From NCBI RefSeq assembly GCF_021531475.1, contig NZ_JADYTX010000025.1, positions 1-33,029 on the forward strand: a DNA stretch of 33,029 nucleotides, read 5' to 3'. This document shows, piece by piece, positions 18,889-28,004 of this stretch. Under the pieces are notes generated by a model, which made no database searches, was not told the DNA's origin, and saw only the letters and a program-made list of their open reading frames with translations. Position numbers and translations under genes: made by a program. Origin of the DNA: Fusobacterium perfoetens (GTDB lineage Bacteria > Fusobacteriota > Fusobacteriia > Fusobacteriales > Fusobacteriaceae). Numbering within the stretch: position 1 is the first letter of the stretch; every line of letters begins with the position of its first letter.

Positions 18889-21363
18889 GTGATTTTTTTA
18901 AAGGAAAGCGAAAAAACAGCTATAATATATGACGATAAAAAAATAACTTATACAGAACTTACTAGAGGAGCAAAAAGTTTTGCCGAGAGATTAAATATAC
19001 AAAGAGATGACAAAGTTGTAGTCTTTATGGAAAATAGACCTGAGATTTTATATGGTTTATTAGCTATATTTGATAAAAGAGGAATCTCTGTAAACTTAGA
19101 CGGAAGTTTTACAAGTGAAGAGCTTGTATATTATCTTACAGACTGTACACCAAAATATATTATTACATCAAGAAAAAATTATGAAACAGCTAAAAAAGGT
19201 GTAGAACTTGCTGGAATTAATGTAGAAATATTAGTTGGAGAAGATATTCCACTTGACTATAACGGAGAAAATATGGTTGTGGAATTAGATGAGAAAACAG
19301 AAAAAGATAAAGTTATGTTTATCCTTTATACTTCTGGAACAACAGGAAATCCAAAAGGGGTAATGCTTACTTTTGACAACCTTTTAGTAAACTTAGAAGG
19401 TCTTATGAAGTATAAAATGTTTAATTCAGAAGATAGAGTTTTAGGAATACTTCCAATGCACCATATCCTACCTCTTTTAGGGTCAGGATTACTTCCAATA
19501 GTTCATGGTTGTACTTTGGTATTTTTAAAAGAACTTTCATCACAAGCTCTTGTTGATGCTCTAAAAAAATATAAGATTACAATCATTATAGGAGTTCCAA
19601 AACTTTGGGAAATGCTTCACAAAAAAATAATGGAAAAAATAAATGGAAGTGGTTTAACAAGAGGAATCTTTAAACTTGCTGAGAAAATAAATAGCAAATC
19701 ATTTAGTAAAATTGTATTTAAAAAAGTTCACGAAGGTTTTGGAGGAGCAGTTCGTTTCTTCGTTGCTGGAGGTTCAAAACTAGACTCTGTTGTTTCAAGA
19801 GATTTTTTAACTTTAGGTATAGATGTCTGTGAAGGATATGGACTTACAGAAACAGCACCAATGGTAAGTTTTACCCCTATAAATAGAGTTATCCCTGGTT
19901 GTGCTGGAGAGATAATTAACGACGTAGAAGTTAAAATAGGTGAAGACGGAGAGATTTTAGTAAAAGGTAGAAACGTAATGAAAGGTTACTACAATAAACC
20001 TGAGGCAACAGCAGAGGTAATAAAAGACGGTTGGTTCCATACTGGAGATTTGGGACGTGTTGAAGGAAAAAATCTTTATGTTACTGGAAGAAAAAAAGAG
20101 ATGATAGTTTTATCTAATGGAAAAAATATCAACCCTGTTGAGATAGAACAATGGATAAGTGCGAAAACTGACCTTATGAAAGAGATAGCTATAATAGATT
20201 ATGAAAATAAACTTACAGCTTTAATCTACCCAGATTTTTATAAACTTCATGAAAAAGGTGTAACAAATATTTTAGAAACATTTAAAATGGGAGTTATAGA
20301 CGAATACAACAGACAAGCTCCAAGTTATAAAAAAGTTTTAGATGTTAAGATAGTAAAAGAGGAGTTTCCAAAAACAAAAATTGGTAAAATCAGAAGATTT
20401 ATGCTTAAGGATTTACTAGAAAATAAAAAAGAAGAAGTACAACAAAAAATAGACGAGCCTACAACAGAGGAATATAAAGAGATTGCAAAATATATAAAAA
20501 CTCTAAAAAATAAACCAGTTCTTCCAACAGCTCATTTAGAGCTTGACTTAGGACTTGATTCACTAGAAGTTGTAGAGCTTTTAACATTTATCGAAAGTAC
20601 ATTTGGTGTAAAAATAGATGAAAAAACTTTAGTAGAACACGCTACAATAAAAGATTTAGCTGAGTATGTGGCAAATGGGTCAAAAGAGGTTACTCACTCA
20701 AATGTAAAATGGAAAGATTTATTAACAGCTGATGTAGATACAACAGGTTTCCCAAAATCTAATACAATTGGAAAAATAGTAAAAGCAGTTTTAAAACTTG
20801 TATTTACATTCTATATAAGAATGGATAAAAAAGGTCTAAAAAATATAGAAAACAAAGAGCCAGTTATTTTTGTTGGAAACCATCAAAGTTTCTTAGATGG
20901 ATTTATTGTAAACCAAAGTTTACCAAATAGAGTTTTAGATAGAACTTGTTTCTTTGCAAAATCTAAACATTTCCAAAAAGGTTATATGAAATTTATGGGA
21001 GAAAACTCAAATATTATCCTTGTTGATATAAATAAAAATCTTGTAAACTCTATGCAACTTTTAGGAAAAGCTTTCAAAATGGGATATAACATAGTTATCT
21101 TCCCAGAGGGTACAAGAACAAGAGATGGAAAAATGGGAACATTTAAAAAATTCTTTGCTATATTATCAAAAGAATTAAATATCCCTGTTGTACCTTTTGT
21201 AATAGATGGAGCTTATGATTTATATCCACCTAGTGCAAAATATCCTCACTCAGGAAAATTAAGTGTTAAATTCCTAGAAAAAGTTTATCCAGACGAAAAT
21301 CTTTCTTATGAAGAATTTGCTGAAAAAATAAAAGGAATTATTGCAAAAGAATTAGAAAAATAA
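18889..21363 (+). CDS. Acyl-activating enzyme / acyl carrier / PlsC acyltransferase fusion
   Basis: This 824-residue protein carries three modules. Residues 1-512 are an AMP-forming acyl-CoA/acyl-ACP synthetase, with YTSGTTGNPKG (147-157), GYGLTETAP (316-324), HTGDLG (384-389) and the catalytic Lys near K500 (TKIGKIRR). Residues about 525-598 are an acyl carrier domain with the phosphopantetheine Ser S558 (LGLDSLEVVE). Residues about 630-824 are a PlsC-type acyltransferase, with NHQSFLD (H665, D670) and FPEGTRTR (738-745). All key residues are present. The order suggests a fatty acid is adenylated, loaded on the built-in carrier and passed to a lysophospholipid, as E. coli Aas does with free ACP in a different domain order. 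The start is GTG, set by AAGGAG. Confidence 0.92.
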   Translation: MIFLKESEKTAIIYDDKKITYTELTRGAKSFAERLNIQRDDKVVVFMENRPEILYGLLAIFDKRGISVNLDGSFTSEELVYYLTDCTPKYIITSRKNYETAKKGVELAGINVEILVGEDIPLDYNGENMVVELDEKTEKDKVMFILYTSGTTGNPKGVMLTFDNLLVNLEGLMKYKMFNSEDRVLGILPMHHILPLLGSGLLPIVHGCTLVFLKELSSQALVDALKKYKITIIIGVPKLWEMLHKKIMEKINGSGLTRGIFKLAEKINSKSFSKIVFKKVHEGFGGAVRFFVAGGSKLDSVVSRDFLTLGIDVCEGYGLTETAPMVSFTPINRVIPGCAGEIINDVEVKIGEDGEILVKGRNVMKGYYNKPEATAEVIKDGWFHTGDLGRVEGKNLYVTGRKKEMIVLSNGKNINPVEIEQWISAKTDLMKEIAIIDYENKLTALIYPDFYKLHEKGVTNILETFKMGVIDEYNRQAPSYKKVLDVKIVKEEFPKTKIGKIRRFMLKDLLENKKEEVQQKIDEPTTEEYKEIAKYIKTLKNKPVLPTAHLELDLGLDSLEVVELLTFIESTFGVKIDEKTLVEHATIKDLAEYVANGSKEVTHSNVKWKDLLTADVDTTGFPKSNTIGKIVKAVLKLVFTFYIRMDKKGLKNIENKEPVIFVGNHQSFLDGFIVNQSLPNRVLDRTCFFAKSKHFQKGYMKFMGENSNIILVDINKNLVNSMQLLGKAFKMGYNIVIFPEGTRTRDGKMGTFKKFFAILSKELNIPVVPFVIDGAYDLYPPSAKYPHSGKLSVKFLEKVYPDENLSYEEFAEKIKGIIAKELEK

Positions 21364-21370
21364 TAAATAA

Positions 21371-21398
21371 AAAAAGTCCGTTAATGGACTTTTTTTTT
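21371..21398 (+). terminator. Terminator after the acyl-activating fusion gene
   Basis: AAAAAGTCC (21371-21379) pairs with GGACTTTTT (21386-21394) around a 6-nt loop, and the T run extends to about 21398. It separates this gene from obgE. Confidence 0.88.
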
Positions 21399-21409
21399 AT
21401 TTCAAAAGA

Positions 21410-21418
21410 TGATATAAT
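21410..21418 (+). promoter_or_regulatory. Extended -10 promoter of obgE
   Basis: TGATATAAT (TATAAT at 21413-21418) follows the terminator of the preceding gene. There is only a T-rich stretch where a -35 would be. The transcript would start near 21425, about 46 nt before the obgE ATG. Confidence 0.5.
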
Positions 21419-21470
21419 AAAATAGATAAAATCTGTAAAAAATTAAAGAAAGTTGAGGTAGATAAAATAG

Positions 21471-22757
<1,287 letters not shown>

Positions 22758-22771
22758 GAATAGGAGTTTTT

Positions 22772-23683
22772 ATGAAAGGGATAGTTATTGCAGGTCCAAC
22801 TGGAGTTGGAAAAACAGATTTGTCTTTAAAATTAGCTGAAGCTTTAGATTGTGAGATAATTTCTGCTGACTCAGCTCAAGTATATAAAGGAATGGATATT
22901 GGAACTGCTAAAATATCTGAGTCTGAAATGATGGGAATAAAACACCATATGCTTGATGTACTAGAGCCGACAAAAAAATATAGTGTTGGAGATTATCAAA
23001 AAGATGTTGATGAAATCCTAAAAACTTTAGAAAAAGAGAATAAAAATGTGATTCTTACAGGTGGAACAGGGTTGTACATCAACTCAATAACAGATGGTTT
23101 ATCAGATTTACCATCAGCAGATGAAATTTTAAGAAATAAATTAAGTGAAATGCCAATAGAGGAGCTTTTTGAAAAATTAAAAGAGCTTGACCCAGAGAGT
23201 GCAGAAACTATCCATATAAATAATAGAAAAAGAGTTGAGAGAGCTTTGGAAGTATGTCTTATTACAAATCAAAAATTTTCAGAGCTTTCTAAGAAAAATA
23301 TAAAAAATAATAACTATTCTTTTTTGAAAGTTTGTCTTATGAGAGATAGAGAACATCTTTATGAAAGAATAAATAAAAGAGTGGATATTATGATGGAGGC
23401 AGGACTTCTTAAAGAGGCAGAGGCGCTTTTCAAAAAATATGGTGGTGAAACTCTAAAAAAAATAAATATAATAGGTTATTCAGAGCTTATTGATTATTTC
23501 GAGGGAAGAATAAGCTTAGAAAAGGCAATAGACGATATAAAGAAAAATTCAAGACACTATGCTAAAAGACAACTTACTTGGTTTAGAAATCAAAAGGATT
23601 ATATCTGGTTTGATTTAGATAAAGATAGTGAAAATGAAATATTGGAATCTATAAAAAATTTATACTTAAAAGAATTAAAATAA
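22772..23683 (+). CDS. miaA: tRNA dimethylallyltransferase MiaA
   Basis: MiaA transfers the dimethylallyl group to A37 of tRNAs that read codons starting with U. The 303-residue protein has the P-loop GPTGVGKT (8-15), SADSAQVYKGMDIGTAK, HHMLDVLEP, LTGGTGLYI and the C-terminal SRHYAKRQLTWFRN motif. All are standard, and the length is normal. ATAGGAG lies just before the ATG. It follows obgE closely and ends before the promoter of the lipoprotein/partner-switch block. No miaB is present in this window. Confidence 0.97.
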   Translation: MKGIVIAGPTGVGKTDLSLKLAEALDCEIISADSAQVYKGMDIGTAKISESEMMGIKHHMLDVLEPTKKYSVGDYQKDVDEILKTLEKENKNVILTGGTGLYINSITDGLSDLPSADEILRNKLSEMPIEELFEKLKELDPESAETIHINNRKRVERALEVCLITNQKFSELSKKNIKNNNYSFLKVCLMRDREHLYERINKRVDIMMEAGLLKEAEALFKKYGGETLKKINIIGYSELIDYFEGRISLEKAIDDIKKNSRHYAKRQLTWFRNQKDYIWFDLDKDSENEILESIKNLYLKELK

Positions 23684-23691
23684 TAATTAAC

Positions 23692-23720
23692 TTGATAAAA
23701 CCAGCGAGTTATGGTATATT
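23692..23720 (+). promoter_or_regulatory. Promoter of the lipoprotein, RsbW-like, RsbV-like block
   Basis: TTGATA (23692-23697), a 17-bp spacer and TATATT (23715-23720). The start would be near 23727, about 20 nt before the lipoprotein ATG. It shows that these genes need not depend on the obgE-miaA promoter. Confidence 0.7.
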
Positions 23721-23746
23721 ATAGAATGAGATTTTGGGAGGAAAAT

Positions 23747-24259
23747 ATGAAGAAATTACTATTTTTAGTTGTAGTTTTGATTTTTATGGGGTGTTCTAAT
23801 ACACAAATAGATAAAAATCAGAAAAATGATATTGCGATTTGTAAACAATACCTAGATAACTGGAAATTAAGTGATTTGGAATATAAAATCCAAGAAATCC
23901 ACACGTATAACAAAGAATTAGCAGATGAATTAAATAAAGATCTACTAGCTAAAAATCAAGCTAAAAAAGATTTAGAAACTTTGCTTAATAAAATAGAGGT
24001 TTCTATTAAAACACATAGAATCGACAGGATTGAAAAAGATTTTGCAAATACAATAAAAAATAGAGAACTTATAAAAATTTTGAAAGAAAATGATTTTTCT
24101 TATCACAAAATTATTATTGGAAAGCCGAAATTTTATAAAAATACTGCGTCTAATGTGATAGGGCTAGTGTATTTAGATCAAGTAATGTATTTATCAGTTG
24201 AGTACAAACTAAAAGAGAGTAAATGGAGGATTGAAGGGTGGAGAGTAAAGAATTTTTAA
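23747..24259 (+). CDS. Predicted lipoprotein of unknown function
   Basis: I do not recognise a family. From the ATG at 23747 (GGGAGGAAAAT before it) it has 170 residues. An upstream in-frame start at 23711 would bury the signal peptide. The leader MKKLLFLVVVLIFMGC ends in a lipobox-like IFMGC with C16 as the lipidated residue; Phe at -3 is unusual. The mature part is helical and Lys-rich (about 25-100) and then has a small beta region (about 110-168, with KPKFYKNTASNVIGLVYLDQ and SKWRIEGWRVKNF), like small NTF2-like or DUF domains. Its end overlaps the start of the RsbW-like gene by 22 bp, so the two are translationally coupled. It could be an envelope input to the partner-switch proteins, but that is inference. 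Confidence 0.75.
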   Translation: MKKLLFLVVVLIFMGCSNTQIDKNQKNDIAICKQYLDNWKLSDLEYKIQEIHTYNKELADELNKDLLAKNQAKKDLETLLNKIEVSIKTHRIDRIEKDFANTIKNRELIKILKENDFSYHKIIIGKPKFYKNTASNVIGLVYLDQVMYLSVEYKLKESKWRIEGWRVKNF

Positions 24260-24651
24260 AAAATGAAATAAAAATTCTAGTTCCATCTACCTTAGAAAAT
24301 TTATCTGTTGTTAGGTCATTAATAAGGGCATACTTAACAAGTTACAAGATAGATGACCGTAGTATAATGGAGATTTTAACTATAACAGATGAGCTGGCTA
24401 CCAACGTAGTAGAACATGGGTATCAATATAAACCAGGGGAGCTTATTATCACAGTTGAAAAAGATGAAAATCTTATAAAACTTGTAGTAGAGGATAATGG
24501 AGTTGGTTTTGACGATACTAAAGTTAGTAAAGAAGAAGGTGGAATGGGGTTAAGAATTGCCAAAAAAATGTCAGATAATTTTAAAATTGAAAAAAAAGTA
24601 AATGGAACAAAATTCAAAGTTGAAAAGAGAGTGAAGGAGGAAAATAAATAA
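24238..24651 (+). CDS. RsbW/SpoIIAB-like anti-sigma serine kinase (HATPase_c_2)
   Basis: This 137-residue protein is a GHKL ATPase of the anti-sigma-factor kinase type. The N box is TDELATNVVEHG (E52, N56), G1 is DNGVGF (86-91), and G2 is GGMGLRI (101-107). Such kinases bind either a target protein, classically a sigma factor, or the unphosphorylated RsbV-type antagonist, which they phosphorylate on Ser. It starts at GTG 24238, 7 nt after GGAGGA inside the preceding gene. Its stop codon overlaps the ATG of the STAS gene, so all three proteins are coupled. No sigma factor or phosphatase is adjacent. Gene order is W then V, the reverse of the Bacillus arrangement. Confidence 0.9.
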   Translation: MESKEFLKNEIKILVPSTLENLSVVRSLIRAYLTSYKIDDRSIMEILTITDELATNVVEHGYQYKPGELIITVEKDENLIKLVVEDNGVGFDDTKVSKEEGGMGLRIAKKMSDNFKIEKKVNGTKFKVEKRVKEENK

Positions 24652-25001
24652 TGAATACAGAATTTAGTTTAGTTGAAAAAAGAGAAGACGGAGTAGTAAT
24701 AATCAATGTAAGTGGAGAATTAGACGCTTTAGTTGCTCCTCAATTAAAAGATAAAATATCTCAAGACATGGAAGATGGAGAAAATAAATTTATCATAAAC
24801 TTTGAAGAGGTAGTACATATCAACAGTTTAGCTTTAGGAATCCTTAGAGGAAAATTAAAATCTGCAAGAGAAGCAGGAGGAGATATCAAATTAGTTAAAC
24901 TAAGTGAACATATAAAATCTATTTTTGAAATGATAGGATTAGATGAGTTATTTGAAATATATGATGAAGAAAATGGAGCGTTAGAAAGCTATAAAAAATA
25001 A
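24651..25001 (+). CDS. RsbV/SpoIIAA-like STAS antagonist protein
   Basis: This 116-residue protein is a stand-alone STAS domain of the anti-anti-sigma type (VVIINVSGELDALVAPQLK; IINFEEVVHINSLALGILRGKLK; VKLSEHIKSIFEMIGLDELFEIYD). Aligned with SpoIIAA, the phosphorylated Ser corresponds to S59; the preceding Asp is Asn (N58) and the following S-G is L-A. The Ser needed for switching is therefore kept in an altered neighbourhood. It is presumably the substrate of the kinase encoded just before it, with which it overlaps by one base. It is followed after 24 bp by rny. Confidence 0.9.
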   Translation: MNTEFSLVEKREDGVVIINVSGELDALVAPQLKDKISQDMEDGENKFIINFEEVVHINSLALGILRGKLKSAREAGGDIKLVKLSEHIKSIFEMIGLDELFEIYDEENGALESYKK

Positions 25002-25025
25002 AAGGGAGTTTAAGAAAGGATAGAT

Positions 25026-26591
25026 ATGGATTATATATTAGGAGTAGGATTAGGAATAATCGGACTTAGTATAGTATTTGCAATGCTTTATAAAAAGTCT
25101 GTTATAGATAAAAAAATAGAAGAATTAAAAAATATGGAAGACGAGCAATTAAAAGGAAAAGTAAAAGCAAAAGAAATAATTAAAAATGCTGAAGCTGAGT
25201 CTTTAATTATAAAAAAAGATATAGAATTAAAAGCTAAAGAGATAGCATATCAAATAAAAGAGGAAGCTGAAAAAGAGATAAAAGCTTCTAAAAATGAAAT
25301 ATTACAAAAAGAGTTAAGAATCACTAGAAAAGAAGAAAATATTGATAATAAATTAGAAAAATTAGAACAAAAAACTTTAGAACTTGATAAAAAAGAAGAG
25401 TTATTAGAAGAAAAAATTCAAGAAGCTGAAGCTTTAAAATTAAAAGAAGAGGAAGAGCTTGAAAAAATATCAGGTCTTTCTAAAAATGAAGCTAAAGAAC
25501 TTCTTATTTCAAAATTAAAAGATAGCTTAACTCACGAAACAGCTGTAGCTATAAAAGAATATGAAACAAGATTACAAGAAACAAAAGAGGATATGGCAAA
25601 GAGAATAATTTCTACTGCTATTGGAAAAGCTGCATCAGAATATGTTGTTGACTCAACAGTTTCTGTTGTAAATCTTCCTAATGATGAGATGAAAGGAAGA
25701 ATCATCGGAAGAGAGGGAAGAAATATAAGAACTATAGAATCACTTACTGGTGTTGACGTAATAATTGACGATACTCCAGAAGCAGTGGTACTTTCAAGTT
25801 ATGATGGTGTAAAAAGAGAAATTGCAAAAAGAGCAATTGATAAATTAATATCTGATGGAAGAATCCACCCAGGTAAAATAGAAGAGCTTGTAAATAAAGC
25901 TAGAAAAGAAATCGAAAAAGATATAATAGATGCTGGAGAACAAGCATTATTAGAAGTTGGAATCCAAGGACTTCACCCAGAAATTGTTAAAACTTTAGGA
26001 AAATTAAAATATAGAACAAGTTATGGACAAAACGTGTTAGTTCACTCAATAGAAGTTGCTAAACTTTGTGGAACATTAGCAGCTGAGCTTGGTTGCAATG
26101 TAAAACTTGCAAAAAGAGGAGGACTATTACACGATATAGGAAAAGTATTAGACCACGAAACAGAATCTTCTCACGCTATAATTGGTGGAGAATTTTTAAG
26201 AAAATTTGGAGAAAAAGAAGATGTTATCAATGCTGTTATGGGACATCATAACGAAGTTGAAAAGAAAACAGTTGAGGCTGTTCTTGTTCAAGCTGCTGAC
26301 GCTGTATCAGCTTCAAGACCAGGTTCAAGAAGAGAAACATTATCTGCTTACTTAAAGAGACTTGCTTCTCTTGAAGAGATAGCAAACTCATTTAAAGGAG
26401 TAGAATCTTCTTATGCTATCCAAGCTGGTAGAGAGATGAGAATTGTTGTAAATCCTGAAACAATCTCTGATGATGAAGCTATAATAATGGCTAGAGATAT
26501 GGCTAAAAAAATCGAAGATACAATGCAATATCCTGGACAAATAAAAGTAACTATCTTAAGAGAAACAAGAGCTACAGAATACGCAAGATAG
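25026..26591 (+). CDS. rny: Ribonuclease Y
   Basis: RNase Y is a membrane-anchored endoribonuclease that starts mRNA decay. The 521-residue protein has an N-terminal membrane helix (about 4-22), a long charged coiled coil (about 25-190), a KH domain with IIGREGRNIRTIE (226-238), and an HD domain with LLHDIGK (H369, D370). It ends TILRETRATEYAR, as in the family. Length and order are standard. It is downstream of the partner-switch genes with a 24-bp gap and no terminator between, so it is probably co-transcribed with them. A terminator follows at 26621. Confidence 0.97.
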   Translation: MDYILGVGLGIIGLSIVFAMLYKKSVIDKKIEELKNMEDEQLKGKVKAKEIIKNAEAESLIIKKDIELKAKEIAYQIKEEAEKEIKASKNEILQKELRITRKEENIDNKLEKLEQKTLELDKKEELLEEKIQEAEALKLKEEEELEKISGLSKNEAKELLISKLKDSLTHETAVAIKEYETRLQETKEDMAKRIISTAIGKAASEYVVDSTVSVVNLPNDEMKGRIIGREGRNIRTIESLTGVDVIIDDTPEAVVLSSYDGVKREIAKRAIDKLISDGRIHPGKIEELVNKARKEIEKDIIDAGEQALLEVGIQGLHPEIVKTLGKLKYRTSYGQNVLVHSIEVAKLCGTLAAELGCNVKLAKRGGLLHDIGKVLDHETESSHAIIGGEFLRKFGEKEDVINAVMGHHNEVEKKTVEAVLVQAADAVSASRPGSRRETLSAYLKRLASLEEIANSFKGVESSYAIQAGREMRIVVNPETISDDEAIIMARDMAKKIEDTMQYPGQIKVTILRETRATEYAR

Positions 26592-26620
26592 AAAATAAAA
26601 TAAAAAATAATTATAAAATT

Positions 26621-26653
26621 AAACCTGATATAGAAAATATGTCAGGTTTTTTT
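26621..26653 (+). terminator. Terminator after rny
   Basis: AAACCTGA (26621-26628) pairs with TCAGGTTT (26642-26649), followed by TTTTTTTAT. It closes the rny transcript before the sialic-acid operon. Confidence 0.88.
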
Positions 26654-26780
26654 ATACAAAAAAATAATAAAATAATAATTTCGGAAACAGAAAAAATCAA
26701 AGAAATGTTAAAAACAGTGTTCTGAAATAAGAAAAAATATTTTTTTTTAAAATAAAATGTGAAAAAATTTAAAAAAACTA

Positions 26781-26809
26781 TTGACAATTTGTAAAAAAAA
26801 GGGTATATT
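26781..26809 (+). promoter_or_regulatory. Promoter of the sialic-acid operon
   Basis: TTGACA (26781-26786), a 17-bp spacer and TATATT (26804-26809), with the start near 26816. The stretch 26654-26780 before it is A/T-rich and shows no gene or clear structure. Confidence 0.8.
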
Positions 26810-26818
26810 TTAAGTAGA

Positions 26819-26843
26819 TGAACACGAGAACAATTTTGTGTCA
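26819..26843 (+). promoter_or_regulatory. Possible operator just downstream of the operon start
   Basis: TGAACAC (26819-26825) and GTGTCA (26838-26843) form an imperfect inverted repeat, with one extra base in the left arm, just after the predicted transcript start. That is a common place for a repressor site. The LacI-type protein encoded in the operon is the obvious candidate to bind it. The symmetry is weak, and the arms are wider apart than in typical LacI operators. Confidence 0.25.
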
Positions 26844-26873
26844 AAAAACATATATAAATATTGGAGGGATTGT

Positions 26874-28004
26874 ATGAAAAAATTTGCTTTAGTATCAATT
26901 ATATCTATTTTAGCTTTAACTGGATGTACAAATGTTAAAGCTCCTAACGTAGAGAAAAAAATCACTTGGGAACACGCAGGAAACTTACCAGCTCAAAAAG
27001 GATTTGAGAAAAACTATGGAGTAGCAGGAGTAATGTGTGGAGTAGTAAGCGATAAATATATAATCGTTGGTGGAGGAGCAAACTTCCCATTTGTACCAAA
27101 TGAAAAGGGTGGAGCTAAAAAAACTTACTCTGATATTTACTTATTAGAAGCAAATGGAACTAAATTAACAACAGTAGACCATATCAACTGGGAAAACGAA
27201 ATCGGTTACGGAGCATCTGTAACAACTAAAGACGGAGTTTATTACTTTGGAGGATCAACAAATCCTGAAGCAGATAACGACGTATTATTAGCAAAAGTAG
27301 TAGATGGAAAATTAAGCGTTGAAAAAGTAGGAGATTTACCATTCACATTACAAAACGGTGGAGCTGTAGAAAAAGACGGAAAAGTTTACATCTATGCTGG
27401 AAAACAAAACGGAAAAGGAAGCAACAAATTCTGGGAATATGACTTAGCTACAAAAGAAGCTAAAGAATTAGCACCAGTTCCAGGAGCAGAACAAAGAACA
27501 CAAGTTGTAGGACAAATATTAAACGGAGAATTATATGTATTCAGTGGAGGTTCTTCAGTAGCTTACACAGACGGATACAAATATAACTTCGATACAAAAG
27601 AATGGACAAGAGTTGCTGATGTAGAATTAGACGGAGAAGGAATCTGTTTATTAGGTGCTGGATCAGTAAAATTAAACGAATCTGAAATGTTAGTAATCGG
27701 AGGATTCAACAGACAATTATGGAACGACGCTAACCACTTCTTAGGAACATTAAAAGGAAAAGAATTAGCAGAGTACAAAGCTGAATATTTTGGAGCAGAA
27801 CCTCATCAATACAACTGGAACAGAAATATCTTAGTTTACAACTCAGTTAAAAACGAATGGAGAACTTTAGGTGAAATACCATTTGACGCTCCATGTGGAG
27901 AAGGATTAGCAATAATCGGAGATAAAGTTTACTCAATAAATGGAGAAATCAAACCAGGTGTAAGAACAGACAGAATGTTTACTGGAACAATCATAAGAAA
28001 ATAA
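26874..28004 (+). CDS. nanM: N-acetylneuraminate epimerase (mutarotase) NanM, lipoprotein form
   Basis: NanM speeds the alpha to beta conversion of sialic acid outside the inner membrane. From ATG 26874 (GGAGGGATTGT before it) the protein has 376 residues. An earlier in-frame start at 26838 has no ribosome site and would mask the signal. The signal peptide ends with the lipobox ALTGC (C18), so this is predicted to be a lipoprotein, whereas E. coli NanM is a soluble periplasmic protein. Kelch-type repeats follow (YIIVGGGANFPF, VYYFGGSTNPE, KVYIYAGKQN, LYVFSGGSS, MLVIGGFNRQLWND), forming the beta propeller. It is the first gene of the sialic-acid operon. Its codons are enriched in AAC, TTC, TAC and GAC, suggesting high expression. 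Confidence 0.93.
   Translation: MKKFALVSIISILALTGCTNVKAPNVEKKITWEHAGNLPAQKGFEKNYGVAGVMCGVVSDKYIIVGGGANFPFVPNEKGGAKKTYSDIYLLEANGTKLTTVDHINWENEIGYGASVTTKDGVYYFGGSTNPEADNDVLLAKVVDGKLSVEKVGDLPFTLQNGGAVEKDGKVYIYAGKQNGKGSNKFWEYDLATKEAKELAPVPGAEQRTQVVGQILNGELYVFSGGSSVAYTDGYKYNFDTKEWTRVADVELDGEGICLLGAGSVKLNESEMLVIGGFNRQLWNDANHFLGTLKGKELAEYKAEYFGAEPHQYNWNRNILVYNSVKNEWRTLGEIPFDAPCGEGLAIIGDKVYSINGEIKPGVRTDRMFTGTIIRK

What the first reader, a model, noticed from the sequence alone, without database searches (positions are those of the whole stretch)
23747..25001. Lipoprotein, kinase and STAS trio without a sigma factor, coupled to rny
Three overlapping genes (22-bp and 1-bp overlaps) with their own promoter encode a predicted lipoprotein, an RsbW-like kinase and an RsbV-like protein with its Ser. 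Nearby there is no sigma factor or PP2C phosphatase. RNase Y follows 24 bp later. The system may switch a non-sigma target, perhaps at the membrane or in RNA decay.
Basis: partly seen in the sequence, partly recalled or inferred. Interest (0 to 1): 0.5.

Follow-up and report, generated by a model that had tools for sequence, protein, structure and literature searches.

The report
Lipoprotein-RNase Y operon with inserted switch
In nearly all genomes of the Fusobacterium phylum that were examined, a gene for a small lipid-anchored protein lies ahead of the gene for a main RNA-cutting enzyme, and in one branch an ordinary kinase-and-antagonist switch, whose phosphatase is encoded far away, lies between the two.

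Summary
The genes and overlaps are as described, but the trio is not one unit. (1) The lipoprotein (predicted NTF2-like fold) goes with rny. Both were found in 93 of 98 Fusobacteriota genomes, and in 93 of 93 the lipoprotein gene lies upstream on the same strand. That includes 33 of 33 genomes of family f4, where the two are neighbours and no RsbW or RsbU orthologue was found. A conserved promoter precedes the lipoprotein gene. (2) RsbW and STAS lie between them in families f1-f3 (RsbW follows the lipoprotein in 60 of 60) and look like an ordinary partner-switch pair. A SpoIIE-type phosphatase is encoded elsewhere in this genome, with an orthologue in 57 of 60 RsbW genomes and a rate that covaries with RsbW. 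(3) The target is open. Besides RpoD the genome has four sigma-type proteins. One, beside rpoD, shares RsbW's distribution (49 of 50 read), but its rate does not covary positively and it is missing from one RsbW-positive genome. A non-sigma target is neither needed nor excluded.

The parts
23692..23720 (+). promoter of the lipoprotein-(rsbW-rsbV)-rny unit: TTGATA, 17, TATATT with TG before the second hexamer
   Evidence: conserved in 7 of 7 genomes of the genus; TTGAww-N14-19-TGnTAnnnT in 37 of 41 f1-f3 and 9 of 11 f4/f6 upstream regions, shuffle means 0.19 and 0.10, 0 of 90 control regions (pattern written after seeing the regions)
23747..24259 (+). lipoprotein gene, 170 aa, lipobox Cys16, predicted NTF2-like domain 66-170; companion of rny across the phylum
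24238..24651 (+). rsbW-like GHKL kinase / anti-sigma family protein, 137 aa, GTG start, 22-bp overlap with the lipoprotein gene
   Evidence: only HATPase_c_2 match of the genome
24651..25001 (+). rsbV-like STAS protein, 116 aa, Ser59 in HINSL
   Evidence: only STAS match of the genome
25026..26591 (+). rny, RNase Y, 521 aa
22772..23683 (+). miaA, upstream neighbour in the f1-f3 loci read (obg 21471-22757 before it), not in the 10 f4 loci read
26621..26649 (+). terminator-like hairpin after rny; the only other terminator-like place in 21300-27000 is 21369-21396, before obg
   Evidence: 3 sites at 2 places found, 1.2 expected

Best explanation
Two things share one transcription unit. The old part, found in 93 of the 98 genomes of the phylum that were searched, is a promoter, an NTF2-like lipoprotein gene and rny (the promoter was looked at in 52 loci only); the lipoprotein is made together with RNase Y, plausibly for a task at the membrane to which RNase Y is anchored. 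The younger part, in families f1-f3, is an rsbW-rsbV pair lying between them. It works as a normal partner switch: RsbW phosphorylates RsbV on Ser59 and, when RsbV is phosphorylated, holds its target; a GAF-SpoIIE phosphatase (RsbU, with a hydrophobic N-terminus that should anchor it in the membrane), encoded elsewhere, dephosphorylates RsbV, which then takes RsbW off the target. SHOWN (by sequence and comparison): gene order, family membership, conserved residues, the remote phosphatase and its co-distribution, and that the lipoprotein-rny pair exists without RsbW and RsbU. INFERRED: the phosphorylation cycle, and that the target is a sigma factor encoded elsewhere. Best single target candidate: the diverged sigma between rpoD and nif3 (about 0.3), then RpoD itself (0.2), another sigma (0.15); a non-sigma target 0.35.
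For: Lipoprotein with rny: 93 of 93 genomes with both, same strand, upstream (the matches in G025 and G083 are partial, at contig ends); f4 33 of 33 with a 25-146 bp gap to the rny match; f1 and f4 lipoproteins homologous, 99.6%, E 2e-23, the f6 one 99.3%, E 2e-20. RsbW directly after the lipoprotein in 60 of 60. Switch: E52, N56, D86, G88, G90, G101, G102, G104 and R26 invariant in 27 of 27; R26 aligns on the Arg of SpoIIAB recalled as R20; S59 invariant; best solved relatives SpoIIAB 2e-14 and RsbW 2e-12, SpoIIAA 1e-16. One match each for HATPase_c_2, STAS and SpoIIE in this genome. RsbU orthologue in 57 of 60 RsbW genomes, 0 of 33 f4. Rate covariation RsbW-RsbU rho +0.48 (p 3e-4; 45 pairs tested), RsbW-STAS +0.35; RsbW-lipoprotein +0.08. 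RNase Y tree of 30 sequences rooted on f6: f1-f3 together (support 73), f4 outside; RsbW was found only in f1-f3, so one insertion is the shortest history.
Against: No biochemistry. Lipoprotein-rny rate covariation is nil (+0.01), so that test gives no support to a physical partnership; conserved adjacency can reflect shared expression only, and a gpsA-like gene is also kept next to its sigma gene in an f4 locus (L097). The f1-f3 grouping has 73% support. RsbU was not found in three RsbW genomes (G013, G015, G060; 94, 82, 76% complete), nor RsbW in two RsbU genomes (G008, G061; 67, 81%). RsbW-rny rate covariation is +0.34 (p 0.01, uncorrected); rny also covaries with rpoD (+0.60), which looks like a slow-gene effect. 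RsbW-nif3 is -0.41 (p 2e-3) without any known reason, so the test is noisy. The STAS motif has Asn where the aligned RsbV and SpoIIAA have Asp before the Ser. STAS proteins were not searched in f4.
Confidence: 0.72

Rival explanations
1. One reading: lipoprotein, kinase and STAS are one signalling unit, the lipoprotein being the sensor, and the output is not a sigma factor.
For: Gene overlaps; RsbW follows the lipoprotein in 60 of 60 RsbW genomes; no sigma gene in the window.
Against: Lipoprotein kept beside rny in 33 of 33 f4 genomes without RsbW or RsbU orthologues; lipoprotein-RsbW rate covariation +0.08; a GAF-SpoIIE protein with a hydrophobic N-terminus is the natural sensor. A lipoprotein would face away from the cytoplasmic kinase (established topology).
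Confidence: 0.1
2. RsbW's target is the diverged sigma-like protein encoded between rpoD and nif3 (258 aa in this genome).
For: Present in 49 of 50 RsbW genomes whose locus was read, with a contig-edge fragment in a 51st, G013; not found beside rpoD in 6 f4, 1 f5 and 1 f6 loci, and the 6 f4 genomes have only two sigma region-2 matches each; regions 2, 3 and 4 detected in the f2, g7 and g8 copies, region 3 only weakly in f3.
Against: Missing, with a short rpoD-nif3 junction, from G018, which keeps RsbW and RsbU; regions 3 and 4 not detected in the copies of this genome, G012, G016 and G055, region 3 being where SpoIIAB holds sigma-F (recalled); rate covariation with RsbW -0.35; the co-distribution rests on about one gain. 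f6 has a weak third sigma match, below cut-off, not followed up.
Confidence: 0.3
3. RsbW throttles the housekeeping sigma RpoD, as in Chlamydia.
For: Precedent: RsbW binds sigma-66 (PMC4552016, abstract). No alternative sigma class was found in every RsbW genome examined: gpsA-linked sigma absent from G016-G018, SigH-like from G037 and G050, ECF from G040 (sorted by length only), rpoD-linked one from G018.
Against: RpoD is universal, so its presence says nothing; rate covariation +0.27, p 0.05 uncorrected; absences rest on one profile search.
Confidence: 0.2
4. The switch acts on RNase Y or on RNA decay through its operon neighbour.
For: In the 59 RsbW genomes where rny was found, RsbW lies between lipoprotein and rny; RsbW-rny rate covariation +0.34.
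Against: RNase Y is kept without RsbW in f4 and f6; one or two further genes separate STAS from rny in f2, f3, G039, G040 and G046; rny covaries more with rpoD.
Confidence: 0.1
5. The lipoprotein-rny adjacency is only shared expression from one promoter, with no functional link.
For: Rate covariation +0.01; in f1-f3 two to four genes between them are tolerated.
Against: 93 of 93 with order kept although the upstream neighbours differ in the 10 f4 loci read; rny is missing where the lipoprotein is missing (G001 and three incomplete genomes), and every other genome at least 90% complete has a strong lipoprotein match except G083, where it is partial at a contig end.
Confidence: 0.45

Closest known systems
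SpoIIAA-SpoIIAB-SpoIIE and RsbV-RsbW-RsbU partner switches of Bacillus
   Same: Kinase, STAS antagonist with phospho-Ser and SpoIIE-type phosphatase of the same families; kinase gene next to antagonist gene
   Different: Order kinase-antagonist; no sigma gene in the operon; phosphatase gene remote; Asn instead of Asp before the Ser; embedded between a lipoprotein gene and rny
Chlamydia Rsb network on sigma-66 (PMC4552016, abstract read)
   Same: Kinase, antagonist and phosphatase of the same families; there the target is the primary sigma factor
   Different: Target here untested; Chlamydia has two RsbV proteins (PMC8256260, passage)
Bordetella BtrU/V/W and other non-canonical STAS-only systems (PMC8256260, passages read)
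   Same: Partner-switch proteins whose sigma target, if any, is not established
   Different: Those are tied to secretion, motility or other traits; nothing here links to them
rny-ymdB of Firmicutes (recalled)
   Same: rny in a conserved neighbourhood; a gene I read as ymdB-like follows rny in several f4 loci and in f6 (name recalled)
   Different: No lipoprotein companion of RNase Y is known to me there; here it is upstream in 93 of 93
NTF2-like proteins of unknown function (3blz, 3fka)
   Same: Fold of residues 66-170: Z 11.6 over 104 residues, rmsd 2.6 (3blz); Foldseek E 7e-4 (3fka)
   Different: Lipid-anchored, with an extra N-terminal helical part; no function transferable

Membership tests
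RsbW/SpoIIAB switch kinase | GHKL ATP-binding boxes with catalytic Glu and Mg-binding Asn (roles recalled) | tested here: met
   E52, N56, D86/G88/G90, G101/G102/G104 invariant in 27 of 27; profile aligns to SpoIIAB over 127 positions, E 2e-14
RsbW/SpoIIAB switch kinase | NCBIfam equivalog score for SpoIIAB or RsbW | tested here: not met
   59.8 of 135 bits (SpoIIAB), 37 of 145 and 29.3 of 155 (RsbW): related, not an equivalog of either
RsbV/SpoIIAA antagonist | STAS domain with the phosphorylatable Ser | tested here: met
   TIGR00377 73.4 bits, cut-off 53.45; S59 invariant 27 of 27, aligned on the Ser of SpoIIAA recalled as S58
RsbV/SpoIIAA antagonist | NCBIfam equivalog score for SpoIIAA | tested here: not met
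   64.2 of 114.75 bits
Partner-switch module | SpoIIE/PP2C-type phosphatase in the same genome | tested here: met
   one, with GAF and SpoIIE domains; orthologue in 57 of 60 RsbW genomes
Partner-switch module | Kinase and phosphatase activity on the antagonist | not testable with these tools
   needs biochemistry
Partner-switch module controlling a sigma factor | A sigma factor bound by the kinase | tested here: inconclusive
   four sigma-type proteins besides RpoD in the genome; none shown to be the target; co-distribution and rate tests conflict
Bacterial lipoprotein | Signal peptide ending in a lipobox Cys | tested here: met
   Cys16 invariant in 26 of 26 (A3) and 29 of 29 (A6), at least 90% but not all of 24 in A5; Lys-led hydrophobic stretch read directly; no signal-peptide program was run
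NTF2-like fold | Curved sheet packed on helices as in solved NTF2-like proteins | tested here: met
   model pLDDT 92.7; Z 11.6 with 3blz, 10.7 with 3duk; Foldseek E 7e-4, prob 1.00 with 3fka; a predicted model, not a solved structure
RNase Y | RNase_Y_N, KH and HD domains, equivalog score | tested here: met
   TIGR03319 668.9 bits, cut-off 454.35; PF12072, PF00013, PF01966

The most novel reading that the evidence does not exclude
The NTF2-like lipoprotein is a dedicated partner of RNase Y in nearly the whole phylum Fusobacteriota, for instance a membrane-side anchor or sensor that sets where or how strongly RNase Y works, and in families f1-f3 the inserted RsbW-RsbV switch ties the same unit to a phosphatase-sensed signal, so that transcription control and RNA decay are set together.
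Probability: 0.2. Interest if true: 0.75.

Novelty: new variant of a known kind. Interest (0 to 1): 0.48.

Why it matters
RNase Y starts mRNA decay in many bacteria (listing, start of the abstract of PMC7029143). No lipoprotein partner of it in Fusobacteriota turned up (one paper each, off topic by title); one search was broader and listed only 12 of 134 papers. A lipoprotein gene that goes with rny through nearly a whole phylum is a direct, testable candidate. The same locus holds the only RsbW-type and only STAS match of this genome, with the only SpoIIE-type phosphatase encoded elsewhere, so one kinase, one antagonist and one phosphatase can be studied cleanly against a short list of sigma factors. 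Searches for Fusobacterium with partner-switching (3 papers), RsbW (7) and anti-sigma (10 of 20 listed) showed no paper on this system by title, abstract start or the passages opened.

Tried and rejected
gpsA-linked 277-aa sigma as the target: present in 33 of 33 f4 genomes, where RsbW was not found, and absent from the three g4 genomes that keep RsbW and RsbU (also from G013, G015, G047 and G056, which are fragmented or incomplete); rejected as a general target. SigH-like and ECF sigmas, told apart by length only: SigH-like absent from G037 and G050, ECF from G040, all RsbW-positive, among the 23 genomes (G015 and G063 were also unclear); the ECF gene is followed by a small gene that looks like a membrane anti-sigma (no Pfam match).

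The rpoD-linked sigma was my favoured target; others (missing in G018; rho -0.35) weakened it. It is kept as a rival and as the leading of several weak candidates.

Rate covariation used the 38 of 51 RsbW genomes with all ten proteins and 52 of 70 branches; 45 pairs were compared. The fixed tree came from six of the ten proteins, RsbU and rny among them. Unexplained clusters (lipoprotein-miaA-nif3, rny-rpoD, and a negative RsbW-nif3) show that speed classes disturb it.

Weak profile matches not believed: DUF2100 (22.6 of 23 bits), LPP20 and FlgM sequence matches to the lipoprotein. The consensus promoter scan alone was no better than chance. The pattern was written after looking at the same regions, so its shuffles overstate the case; the zero counts before miaA (28), rsbW (33) and rny (29) are the fairer control. 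The looser TGnTAnnnT alone occurs in 41 of 41 and 11 of 11, shuffle means 8.7 and 2.1, and in 8, 3 and 7 of those controls. One search used 41 of the 50 loci (eight close relatives of kept rows and one without the lipoprotein left out), parts of the loci for the controls too, and some start positions were estimated.

Papers: one search listed one paper on topic (PMC11005410); passages: it maps F. nucleatum transcripts, and RsbW and RNase Y do not occur in its main text. PMC2887360, passages: lists F. nucleatum, nothing on this system.

Full report
What is there. A 170-aa lipoprotein gene (23747-24259), a GTG-start RsbW/SpoIIAB-family kinase gene (24238-24651) and a STAS gene (24651-25001) overlap by 22 and 1 bp, and rny starts 24 bp later. 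Upstream lie obg and miaA. In 21300-27000 terminator-like hairpins occur only before obg and after rny.

The switch is complete in the genome. The genome (2.02 Mb, 99.99% complete) has one HATPase_c_2, one STAS and one SpoIIE match. The first two are in this window. The phosphatase is encoded on another contig between the end of uvrC and a DUF1385-like gene (names by reading the translations and recall), and has a hydrophobic N-terminus (read directly), a GAF domain and the SpoIIE domain. Other PP2C families were not searched. Across 98 genomes of the phylum, RsbW (E below 1e-15) is in 60: 58 of 61 in f1 and the single f2 and f3 genomes; it was found in 0 of 33 in f4 and in neither f5 nor f6. 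A full-length RsbU orthologue is in 59, together with RsbW in 57; f4 has none, though 13 of 33 hold a distant SpoIIE protein. The kinase boxes, the Arg aligned on the SpoIIAB residue recalled as R20, and Ser59 of the STAS protein are invariant in 27 of 27 aligned. On a fixed tree of 38 genomes the rates of RsbW and RsbU, and of RsbW and STAS, rise and fall together (rho +0.48 and +0.35). This fits an ordinary partner switch with a remote phosphatase.

The lipoprotein goes with rny. In 10 of 10 f4 genomes first examined, a lipoprotein gene of about 130 aa stands directly before rny, with other upstream neighbours and no rsbW. It is the same family as the one in the window: profile comparison 99.6%, E 2e-23 over 130 columns; the f6 copy 99.3%, E 2e-20. 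A joint profile and an RNase Y query over the same 98 genomes found both in 93. In 93 of 93 the lipoprotein is upstream on the same strand: f4 33 of 33 with 25-146 bp to the rny match; f1 57 of 57 with 770-1941 bp; f2 and f3 about 3 kb; f6 adjacent by reading frames; in G025 and G083 the lipoprotein match is partial, at a contig end. Of the other five, G008, G056 and G061 are 62-81% complete genomes where neither was found, G045 has the lipoprotein but its contig ends before rny, and G001 (f5, 0.8 Mb) lacks both. RsbW follows the lipoprotein directly in 60 of 60. In f2, f3, G039, G040 and G046 one or two further genes lie between STAS and rny; the two in f2 are TPR proteins, the others were not tested.

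Promoter. TTGAww, 14-19 bases, TGnTAnnnT precedes the lipoprotein gene in 37 of 41 f1-f3 loci and 9 of 11 f4/f6 loci, against means of 0.19 and 0.10 in shuffles and none before miaA (0 of 28), rsbW (0 of 33) or rny (0 of 29). The pattern was written after seeing the regions.

History. In an RNase Y tree of 30 sequences rooted on f6, f1-f3 group together (support 73) with f4 outside. RsbW was found only in f1-f3, so one insertion of rsbW-rsbV into an existing lipoprotein-rny unit is the shortest account; two losses would also do.

Lipoprotein. Cys16 is invariant in two alignments (26 and 29 rows) and at least 90% in a third (24 rows). The predicted model (mean pLDDT 92.7) has an NTF2-like domain in residues 66-170: Z 11.6 with 3blz and 10.7 with 3duk, Foldseek E 7e-4 with 3fka. 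The fold names no function. A task with RNase Y is a proposal; rate covariation of the two is nil (+0.01).

Target. The genome has RpoD and four other sigma-type proteins. SigH-like: missing in G037 and G050; ECF: missing in G040 (sorted by length). The protein between rpoD and nif3 is in 49 of 50 RsbW genomes whose locus was read, with a contig-edge fragment in G013, and not beside rpoD in six f4 loci. Regions 2, 3 and 4 are detected in the f2, g7 and g8 copies (region 3 weakly in f3), but only region 2, at most, in this genome, G012, G016 and G055. It is missing from G018, and its rate runs against that of RsbW (-0.35). RpoD has the Chlamydia precedent (abstract of PMC4552016) and a weak +0.27. 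I rank rpoD-linked sigma 0.3, RpoD 0.2, another sigma 0.15, non-sigma 0.35.

Novelty. The switch is a new member of a known kind in an unusual place. The lipoprotein-rny pair did not turn up in the papers searched (one search listed 12 of 134). Family f4 is probably Leptotrichiaceae, but no call names it.

Noticed in passing
L119:1498-2274 (G000:C4, between rpoD and nif3): A sigma-70 paralogue beside rpoD with regions 2-4 in f2, g7 and g8 copies but only part of region 2 detectable in this genome, missing in G018; its rate covaries with the gpsA-linked sigma (rho +0.54).
   Followed up: partly
G016-G018 (genus of F. gastrosuis): The gpsA-linked sigma factor, found in most genomes of f1 and in 33 of 33 of f4, is missing here; G016 is a single contig.
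   Followed up: partly
L005:1023-2258 (G000:C13): A small lipoprotein-like gene, an ECF sigma gene and a 108-aa gene with a hydrophobic stretch follow one another; the last may be an anti-sigma factor (no Pfam match).
   Followed up: no
family f4, e.g. G090:C1:1888554-1889291, G088:C26:29925-30746: 13 of 33 f4 genomes hold a distant SpoIIE phosphatase although no RsbW was found there.
   Followed up: no
L114:672-2778, L109:3628-4776, L115:165-2175: Extra genes between the STAS gene and rny in f2, G046 and f3; the f2 pair are TPR proteins, the others were not tested.
   Followed up: partly
26838-28004: Kelch/NANM-like protein with a lipobox-like stretch after rny, with a promoter-like site TTGACA-17-TATATT at 26781-26809 (11 of 12).
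   Followed up: no
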